Below are positions 2,109 to 8,456 of a stretch of DNA of 34,247 nt, piece after piece; positions within the stretch are counted from its first letter, which is position 1, and each line of letters starts with the position of its first letter. Where the stretch lies: assembly GCA_019694595.1 (NCBI GenBank), contig JAIBBQ010000054.1, forward strand, positions 1 through 34,247. The letters run 5' to 3'. Origin of the DNA: Myxococcaceae bacterium. Its GTDB lineage: Bacteria > Myxococcota > Myxococcia > Myxococcales > Myxococcaceae. Below the pieces are notes generated by a model. It made no database searches. It was given only the letters and a program-made list of their open reading frames with translations, and was not told the DNA's origin. The translations under genes were made by a program, and so were the position numbers.

Positions 2109-3047
2109 TCAGTTGCAGCTGTCGTCGTTGCCCGGGTTCACCCGGCAGCCGTTGGCGCAGCTGCGGATGACGCTCACCGACACGCCGTCGGAGCCGCAGC
2201 GGTAGAGCGTGCTCGAGTTGCCGCTCACCACGTCGCCGCCGCAGTACGCGCTGCCCGCCACGCACCGGCAGCTGTCGTCGCGCCCGGGGTTGACGCTGCA
2301 GCCGTGCGAGCAGCTGCGAATCACCGTGGCCGACTTGCCGTCGCTGCCACAGCGGTAGAGCGTGCTCGCGTTGCCCGACACCTTGTCGCCGCCGCAGTAG
2401 CTGCCGCCCGGCACGCAGCTGCCCGAACCAGAGCTCGAGCCGCCCGACGACGGCGGGGCGTTGCCGTTGAGCACCGCGCGCACCGCCGCCTTCTCTTCCG
2501 CGGTGATGGCGCAGTGGGTCTCGTAGCCGTCGCTCGCCAGGCCGTTGTGGCCGCGCAGGAAGGAGTCGATCTGATTGCGCAGCGACGACTTGAGCGACGG
2601 CGTGCCCGCGTACACCATGTGGATGTGGTACCCGAACGACGGCGGCACCCGGTAGAAGGCCGCGAAGCCCTGCATGCGAAGGTTGTGCACGCGCGCACAC
2701 GGCGAGCCCCCCGGGTCGATGTCCGTCGCCGCCGAGTACGTCGCGCCGGGCTCCGGGCAGTGCGTGCCCACCGAGGCCGACGCGTCGCCGAAGGTCTGGA
2801 TGAGCGAGCCGTCGCCCACGCCCGCGCGCAGCATCGCGGCGTGCGCCCCCGAGTACATGCGCGACGGAGAGCTCGAGAAGCCGCAGGTGTACGGCTGCGG
2901 GCAGTAGCAGGTGCGCAGCTCGCTGCTGCTCACCGCCTCCGTGTCGCCCGCTTCCGCGTCGTCGGCGCCGTCGACGATGGGGCCGCAGCCCGACGCCACC
3001 GCAAGCGCACCACACAGGGTTGCCAGGACAGGGTTGAACGCGCGCAT
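2109..3047 (-). CDS. Lipoprotein with possible M15-like peptidase domain and two Cys-rich C-terminal repeats
   Basis: The start was placed at the ATG at 3047-3045 because a GAGGAG ribosome-binding site lies just upstream and because it gives a clean lipoprotein signal: MRAFNPVLATLCGALAVASG then Cys. The 312-residue product has an N-terminal domain with THCPEPGATYSAATDID followed later by GYHIHMVY. The order His, Asp, HxH recalls zinc-ligand spacing of M15/VanX-type D-Ala-D-Ala peptidases, but the match is partial and this is inference. After a Ser/Gly linker come two tandem repeats of ~47 residues, each with YCGGDxVSGNxSTLYRCGSDG, a VIRSC segment and VNPGxDDSC. Six to seven Cys per repeat suggest disulfide-rich surface modules. 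It may bind or cleave cell-wall material; a purely structural role is equally possible. Confidence 0.7.
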   Translation of the reverse strand: MRAFNPVLATLCGALAVASGCGPIVDGADDAEAGDTEAVSSSELRTCYCPQPYTCGFSSSPSRMYSGAHAAMLRAGVGDGSLIQTFGDASASVGTHCPEPGATYSAATDIDPGGSPCARVHNLRMQGFAAFYRVPPSFGYHIHMVYAGTPSLKSSLRNQIDSFLRGHNGLASDGYETHCAITAEEKAAVRAVLNGNAPPSSGGSSSGSGSCVPGGSYCGGDKVSGNASTLYRCGSDGKSATVIRSCSHGCSVNPGRDDSCRCVAGSAYCGGDVVSGNSSTLYRCGSDGVSVSVIRSCANGCRVNPGNDDSCN

Positions 3048-7068: not shown

Positions 7069-7629
7069 TCAGCCCGGGTGCCACTTGATGTTGCAGCCGA
7101 TGCTGGCGCGCTGCTCCGGCGCGGGCGCCTTGCCGGCGAGCACCTGGTCGAGCGCGGCCCCGAGGTCCTTGCCCGTCACCGGCACGCCGTTGCTCGGGCG
7201 GGAGTCGTCGAACTGGCCGCGGTAGGCGAGCGAGCGCCGGGCGTCGAAGAGGAAGAGGTCGGGCGTGCACACCGCCTGGAAGGCCCTGGCCACGTCCTGG
7301 GTCTCGTCGAAGAGGAAGGGGAAGCGCCAGCCTTCCTTCTGCGCCAGTGACTTCATGTGCTCCGGCCCGTCCTGCGGGTGGGTGCGCGTGGAGTTGGCGT
7401 TGATGGCCACCACGGACAGGCCCGAGTCGACCGCCCGGTGCGCCAGCGCGACCAGCTGCTGCCGGATGTGGATGACGTAGGGGCAGTGGTTGCAGATGAA
7501 CATCACCAGCACGCCCTTGGGACCGGTGAGCCCTGAGGATGCGACGGGCTTGCCCGTCACCGCGTCGGGCAGCGTGAAGGGCGGCAGGGCGGTGCCGAGG
7601 GGGAGCATGGTGGAGGGGGTGGCAGCCAT
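7069..7629 (-). CDS. AhpC/TSA-type thioredoxin-like redoxin
   Basis: 186 residues. The fold signature is PLGTALPPFTLPDAVTG followed by GVLVMFICNHCPYV, with a CxxC pair (Cys46, Cys49) at the start of the first helix, then VVAINANS and a PFLFDETQDVARAF segment typical of peroxiredoxin/redoxin proteins. CNHCPY-type proteins form a distinct thioredoxin-like group whose substrates are not well defined; thiol oxidoreductase or peroxidase activity is a family inference. The start was placed at the ATG at 7629 because upstream codons to 7743 encode a basic, Cys-containing stretch unlike the family. No signal peptide is visible from this start, so it is probably cytoplasmic. Confidence 0.82.
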   Translation of the reverse strand: MAATPSTMLPLGTALPPFTLPDAVTGKPVASSGLTGPKGVLVMFICNHCPYVIHIRQQLVALAHRAVDSGLSVVAINANSTRTHPQDGPEHMKSLAQKEGWRFPFLFDETQDVARAFQAVCTPDLFLFDARRSLAYRGQFDDSRPSNGVPVTGKDLGAALDQVLAGKAPAPEQRASIGCNIKWHPG

Positions 7630-7871
7630 GCTCCGGGTGTAGCGCGCAGCCGGGCCTCGCGCATCTCGGCTCGGTGAGCGGCGAATCGGGTCGTCCACGA
7701 CTCCGGGCCTCTCGGTGCAGCAACCTGCATCGCATGACTTCAACGCCTGGCCTCGATCCGACGCCTCCTCACGCTGACCTGTCCGGGAATCGGCAGGAAT
7801 GTCCGAGAAGGCGTCGGCCCCAGACAGCGGGTGACCTCATTGGCGGCAGGGTACTCACGCACTCGGTCGAC
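7630..7871. other. Gene-free stretch before the tandem array, with a spaced direct repeat
   Basis: About 240 bases with no gene I can support. It should hold the redoxin promoter. TGTCCG followed by a GAA-containing word occurs twice, at 7780 and 7800, exactly 20 bases apart, as a regulator dimer site might. GGTGACC (7830-7836) and GGTCACC (7873-7879) form an inverted repeat reaching the first array unit, and GGTACTC (7850-7856) is complementary to GAGTACC (7881-7887) in the array edge. Confidence 0.35.
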
Positions 7872-8415
7872 CCGGTCACCGAGTACCTGGGTCGACCGAG
7901 TACCTGGGTCGACCGAGTACCTGGGTCGACCGAGTACCTGGGTCGACCGAGTACCTGGGTCGACCGGGTGCCTGGGTCGGCCCGGTTCCTGGGTCGTCCC
8001 GGTGCGTACGTCGACCGGGTGCCTGGGTCGACCGGGTGCCTGGGTCGACCGGGTGCGTGGGTCGACCAGGTGCCTGGGTCGACCAGGTGCCTGGGTCGAC
8101 CGGGTGCGTGGGTCGACCGGGTGCGTGGGTCGACCGGGTGCCTGGGTCGACCGGGTGCCTGGGTCGGCCCGGTTCCTGGGTCGTCCCGGTGCGTACGTCG
8201 ACCGGGTGCCTGGGTCGACCGGGGGCCTGGGTCGACCGGGGGCGTGGGTCGACCAGGTGCGTGGGTCGACCAGGTGCCTGGGTCGACCGGGTGCGTGGGT
8301 CGACCGGGTGCGTGGGTCGACCGGGTGCGTGGGTCGACCGAGTGCGTGGGTCGACCATGTGCCTGGGTCGACTGGGTGCCTGGGTCGACCGGGTGCGTGG
8401 GTCGACCGGGTGCGT
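7872..8415. repeat. 17-bp tandem repeat array, about 32 units
   Basis: Thirty-one units of 17 bp run without a single insertion or deletion from 7889 to 8415, preceded by one degenerate unit (7872-7888). The first four full units are identical (GGGTCGACCGAGTACCT); most others are variants of GGGTCGACCGGGTGCCT or end in GCGT. The hexamer GTCGAC is intact in 27 of the 31. Units 5-15 (7957-8143) and 16-26 (8144-8330) form a 187-bp internal duplication: both copies carry the same rare trio (GGGTCGGCC, GGGTCGTCC and ACGTCGACC units) and differ at only a few positions. Because 17 is not a multiple of three and no frame contains a stop, reading frames are open across the array on both strands; this is a by-product and I do not call a gene. 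Confidence 0.95.
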
Positions 8416-8456
8416 GGGTACCAGCGGAAATTGCCGGCCCTGGCGCCTGCTCGACA

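What the first reader, a model, noticed from the sequence alone, without database searches (positions are those of the whole stretch)
7872..8415. 17-bp tandem array with perfect register and an 11-unit internal duplication
About 32 units of 17 bp run with no indel. GTCGAC is intact in 27 of 31 full units, usually within the 8-bp palindrome GGTCGACC. Units 5-15 and 16-26 share three rare variant units in the same order, so a 187-bp block was duplicated and then drifted slightly. The leftmost four units are identical, consistent with recent growth at that end. A regular array of palindromes between the redoxin and VOC genes could be a protein-binding array, a methylation target, a recombination hot spot or a contingency locus. 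Strict unit length with base-level drift suggests that unit length itself is kept.
Basis: seen in the sequence. Interest (0 to 1): 0.6.

Follow-up and report, generated by a model that had tools for sequence, protein, structure and literature searches.

The report
Dispersed intergenic 17-bp tandem repeat family
The array is one of at least 16 copies of a palindrome-rich tandem repeat scattered between genes in this one genome, mostly just past the ends of genes; it resembles known bacterial interspersed repeats and is probably not a special control site for its two neighbours.

Summary
Window 7874-8419 holds 32 head-to-tail 17-bp units (90% matches, no indels), with an 11-unit (187-bp) internal duplication (4 differences; 7 of 2000 unit shuffles reach the signal at any lag) and four identical units at the left. 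The same assembly (7.28 Mb, 394 contigs) holds at least 15 further arrays of the same unit family, 3 to about 22 units long, all judged intergenic by a simple ORF screen where testable. They share inverted ends at a fixed distance (GTAC-N10-GGTCGAC). Two subfamilies carry copied flanking sequence: a head in six copies, including this one, and GTACTTTGCCCTCGGGG in four. One end usually lies 8-90 bp past a gene's stop codon (VOC, SecA, thiolase). None of 144 other genomes of the order, nor plasmids, phages or viral contigs, has the unit. No RAYT/Y1 transposase was found. Strict unit length fails at two other loci. Best reading: a lineage-specific interspersed repeat (like STAR or MIRU) whose arrays grow by slippage, possibly acting weakly as 3'-end RNA hairpins. 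Ordinary in kind; I found no description of this sequence.

The parts
7874..8419 (.). 17-bp tandem array, 32 units, consensus GGTCGACC-GGGTGCSTG
   Evidence: TRF; unit list
7958..8144 (.). first copy of the 11-unit (187-bp) internal duplication
   Evidence: 4 mismatches to 8145-8331
8145..8331 (.). second copy of the 11-unit duplication
7890..7957 (.). four identical leftmost units GGTCGACCGAGTACCTG
7798..7849 (+). subfamily A head, sequence outside the array shared with five other array loci (TGTCCGAGAA...GGCGGCAG)
   Evidence: copies at C59, C146, C287, C58, C48
7850..7880 (+). left inverted end GGTACTCACGCACTCGGTCGACCCGGTCACC, includes a half-unit phase shift
   Evidence: pair I2, 84% complementary to 8392-8422; GTAC-N10-GGTCGAC
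8392..8422 (+). right inverted end GGTGCGTGGGTCGACCGGGTGCGTGGGTACC
   Evidence: one search shows the same end at C58 and C155
8457..8885 (-). VOC/glyoxalase-family gene; its stop codon lies 34 bp from the GGTACC end
   Evidence: Pfam Glyoxalase E 5e-18
7069..7743 (-). AhpC/TSA-redoxin gene whose 5' end faces the head (start could also be the ATG at about 7631)
   Evidence: Pfam AhpC-TSA E 3e-16

Best explanation
The array is one copy of a lineage-specific interspersed repeat: a non-coding intergenic element made of tandem 17-bp units. Each unit is a palindrome (GGTCGACC) plus a 9-bp spacer, and the array is closed by inverted GTAC ends. Copies were spread in this genome by an unidentified route (transposition in trans or recombination between repeats). 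At each site the array lengthens and shortens by slippage or unequal recombination, which explains the 187-bp duplication and the identical end units. The elements sit mainly just past gene stop codons, where they are tolerated and probably act weakly, if at all, as transcribed 3' hairpins. Shown here: dispersal, shared ends and heads, intergenic location usually near a gene 3' end, within-array similarity of units, absence from the other genera tested. Inferred: the copying route, the slippage, and any RNA-level effect.
For: At least 16 array loci in G000, variable length. Fixed GTAC-N10-GGTCGAC ends with 39 matches, most of them at arrays, against 7 for the reversed-pattern control. Copied heads of 77-94% identity at six loci and GTACTTTGCCCTCGGGG, with at most one mismatch, at four. 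Units are more alike within arrays than between (1.29 v 1.72 differences; 0 of 2000 permutations). No other genome of the order has the unit: 1 of 145, own only, and 1 of 60 with a second pattern. Genes whose 3' ends face arrays are real by Pfam: VOC, LysM/SLT, M23 peptidase, FMN oxidoreductase, CNNM/CorC, SecA, TruB, thiolase. Strong folding on both strands, RNA z -4.8 and -7.6. The smallest copy is a terminator-like hairpin followed by TTTTT, 9 bp past a thiolase stop.
Against: No target-site duplication or empty site was shown and no mobilising enzyme was found (Y1_Tnp absent; other transposases not searched). No second genome of the genus is held, so array length change between strains was not seen. 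The 3'-end preference was not calibrated against the genome's own intergenic regions, and several flanking ORFs lack a Pfam match. Strong folding partly follows from the repeat itself.
Confidence: 0.72

Rival explanations
1. The arrays are functional 3'-end RNA elements: transcription terminators or mRNA 3' stabilisers built from an expandable hairpin, selected at gene ends.
For: One end usually lies 8-90 bp after a stop codon. The C392 copy folds as CGCCGGUAC...GUACCGGCG followed by U5. RNA folding z is -4.8 to -7.6 in the window.
Against: Most copies, including this one, lack a T-run after the closing stem. Array orientation relative to the gene differs between subfamilies. Lengths of 3 to 32 units are not what a terminator needs.
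Confidence: 0.17
2. The palindromes are binding sites for a dedicated DNA-binding protein (nucleoid organiser, partition-like or methylase-linked), and the dispersed arrays act as its clusters.
For: GTCGAC is kept in most units while the spacer varies. Arrays are dispersed over 14 or more contigs.
Against: 17 bp is not a whole number of helical turns. Unit counts differ widely, and some copies alternate GTCGACC with GTGACC. The core-conservation count is conditioned on finding GTCG.C. Absent from every other genus tested.
Confidence: 0.07
3. The elements are non-autonomous transposons (MITE-like) with terminal inverted repeats, still mobilised by a transposase in this genome. This overlaps with the best explanation, of which it would be the copying route.
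For: Inverted ends GGTACYCANGCAC / GTGCNTGNGTACC at a fixed distance and copied heads outside the array.
Against: No target-site duplication seen by eye, one end fixed only in some copies, and no RAYT; other transposases were not searched.
Confidence: 0.2

Closest known systems
STAR elements of Staphylococcus (PMC3532100)
   Same: Short GC-rich direct repeats dispersed in intergenic regions, locations differ between species, loci expand and contract, function and spread unknown
   Different: STAR repeats are 14 bp with spacers of 40 bp or more; here 17-bp units are head to tail, palindromic, with inverted GTAC ends; no sequence relation
MIRU / VNTR loci of Mycobacterium (from general knowledge)
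   Same: Interspersed intergenic tandem arrays of one unit family with different copy numbers per locus
   Different: MIRU units are several times longer; strain variation is known there but not tested here
REP / BIME elements (from general knowledge)
   Same: Palindromic, extragenic, at gene 3' ends, clustered
   Different: REPs are linked to RAYT Y1 transposases; none found in this genome; no REP-type GTAG motif sought

Membership tests
Interspersed intergenic tandem repeat (VNTR-type) family | same unit at many loci of one genome | tested here: met
   16 or more loci
Interspersed intergenic tandem repeat (VNTR-type) family | intergenic location | tested here: met
   ORF and GC3 screen of 16 loci; one locus at a contig end (C287a) unclear
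Interspersed intergenic tandem repeat (VNTR-type) family | copy number differs between strains at one locus | not testable with these tools
   no second genome of the genus held; only differences between loci seen
STAR element | 14-bp consensus T(G/A/T)TGTTG(G/T)GGCCC(C/A) with spacers of 40 bp or more | tested here: not met
   unit is 17 bp, GGTCGACCGGGTGCGTG, without such spacers; definition
REP/RAYT system | Y1 tyrosine transposase (PF01797) in the genome | tested here: not met
   0 matches in G000, control genomes ring
MITE | terminal inverted repeats | tested here: met
MITE | target-site duplication and empty sites | tested here: inconclusive
   no duplication seen by eye in flanks; no congener for empty sites
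CRISPR array | repeats separated by unique spacers | tested here: not met
   spacer positions are nearly invariant between units

The most novel reading that the evidence does not exclude
A satellite-like bacterial element that moves as a hairpin-ended tandem array into sites just past gene stop codons and there acts as an expandable terminator or 3' UTR, so that array length tunes expression of neighbouring genes.
Probability: 0.1. Interest if true: 0.6.

Novelty: new member of a known kind. Interest (0 to 1): 0.27.

Why it matters
It shows that the array is a genome-wide family and not a single regulatory site, which changes what to test. The family has fixed inverted ends and a frequent 3'-of-gene position without a RAYT transposase, so it is a small, clean case for asking how interspersed repeats spread in bacteria. 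It could also serve as a multi-locus typing marker for this lineage.

Tried and rejected
Protein-coding reading: ORFs cross the array in several frames, but 17 is not a multiple of 3 and the GC3 screen does not pick them. Known RNA family: only microRNA models far below their gathering scores. Mobile DNA: no match in plasmids, phages or viral contigs. Wide scan for GTCGACC at 17-bp spacing: 57 stretches in the genome collection, mostly short and with unrelated spacers. The nearest (Polyangiaceae MAG OFTM3, 14 of 17 alike, and a Vicinamibacteria MAG) look like single arrays and not dispersed families. Tandem arrays in sampled relatives: few, none shared between loci, but only 20-160 kb of each was sampled. 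RAYT-driven spread: no Y1_Tnp.

Full report
What was checked. The array is present as described. Tandem Repeats Finder gives 7874-8419, period 17, 32.2 copies, no indels. Thirty full units from 7890 fall into 13 types. The 11-unit lag has the highest identity of lags 1-15 (0.913; shuffles 0.861, sd 0.013; 7 of 2000 reach it at any lag), and blocks 7958-8144 and 8145-8331 differ at 4 of 187 bases. The four leftmost units are identical. One more palindrome at 7865 is out of register by half a unit.

The array is not alone. A two-unit pattern hits 122 places in the same genome (56 + 66) and none with the reversed-pattern control. Three-unit hits group into 14 arrays. Head and end searches add C380 and a second C392 array, giving at least 16 loci plus one single-unit remnant beside C97. 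Lengths range from 3 to 32 units; three arrays are cut by contig ends, so some counts are minima and the assembly may have collapsed others.

Anatomy of the family. Most arrays begin or end, and several do both, with GTAC at exactly 10 bases from the first or last GGTCGAC, in inverted orientation. Six copies, this one included, share a head outside the array (TGTCCGAGAA ... CTCGTTGGCGGCAGGGTACTCAGGCAC) with 77-94% identity. Four others share GTACTTTGCCCTCGGGG at one end. Because sequence outside the tandem part was copied too, independent expansion at each site cannot explain the family. In C380 and C179 the array breaks into 8- and 9-bp half-units (GTGACCGG, GTCGACCGG), so the 17-bp unit looks like a dimer of degenerate palindromes, and strict length is not kept family-wide (the dimer reading is inference).

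Where the copies sit. A screen of ORFs by length and third-position GC places the arrays between genes. In most, one array end lies 8-90 bp past a stop codon; eight of the facing genes have Pfam matches, including VOC, SecA, TruB and thiolase. No array was found between two divergent genes where both neighbours could be called; at C97 the left neighbour was called by eye from an ORF ending at 2044. This bias is not calibrated against all intergenic regions. Neighbour identity has no common theme.

Distribution. None of 144 other genomes of the order, none of 59 relatives with a second pattern, and no plasmid, phage or viral contig carries the unit. Only one genome of the genus is held, so the family may be species- or genus-wide. 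Other 17-bp arrays with GTCGACC exist widely but with unrelated spacers.

Structure and mechanism. Neighbouring palindromes can pair into 8-bp stems with 9-nt loops. Folding is stronger than shuffles in RNA on both strands (z -4.8, -7.6) and in DNA (z -4.0). The smallest copy forms one long hairpin followed by UUUUU, 9 bp after a thiolase stop, as an intrinsic terminator would, but most copies lack the T-run. Units are more alike within than between arrays, as expected from slippage or unequal recombination at each locus. The spreading route is open: no Y1/RAYT transposase was found in this 99%-complete genome, and no target duplication or empty site could be shown.

Comparison. It works like STAR elements (PMC3532100), which are dispersed intergenic direct repeats of unknown function that expand and contract, and like MIRU loci (general knowledge); it is not a STAR element by sequence. 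It is REP-like in position and palindromy, but the RAYT feature was tested and not met. Literature searches found no description of this unit, within an open-access library only.

Verdict. A true feature, wrongly seen as local. It is a new sequence family of a known kind, with modest interest for its fixed inverted ends and 3'-of-gene position.

Noticed in passing
L096:1432-1524: Smallest copy of the family: the array is enclosed in a perfect 9-bp GC-rich stem followed by TTTTT, 9 bp past a thiolase stop codon, as in an intrinsic terminator.
   Followed up: partly
window 2115-2417: Two-copy 153-bp tandem repeat, 80% matches, unrelated to the array.
   Followed up: no
L140:13-175: Polyangiaceae MAG OFTM3 has one 17-bp array, GTCGACCCGCGCACCGC, 14 of 17 alike to this unit, at a contig end; not dispersed in that genome.
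   Followed up: partly
L073, L068, L071: Three arrays of the family run into contig ends, so the draft assembly breaks at them and copy numbers are minima.
   Followed up: no
L065:2298-2322: A single-unit remnant with the inverted head end lies about 70 bp beyond the C97 array.
   Followed up: no
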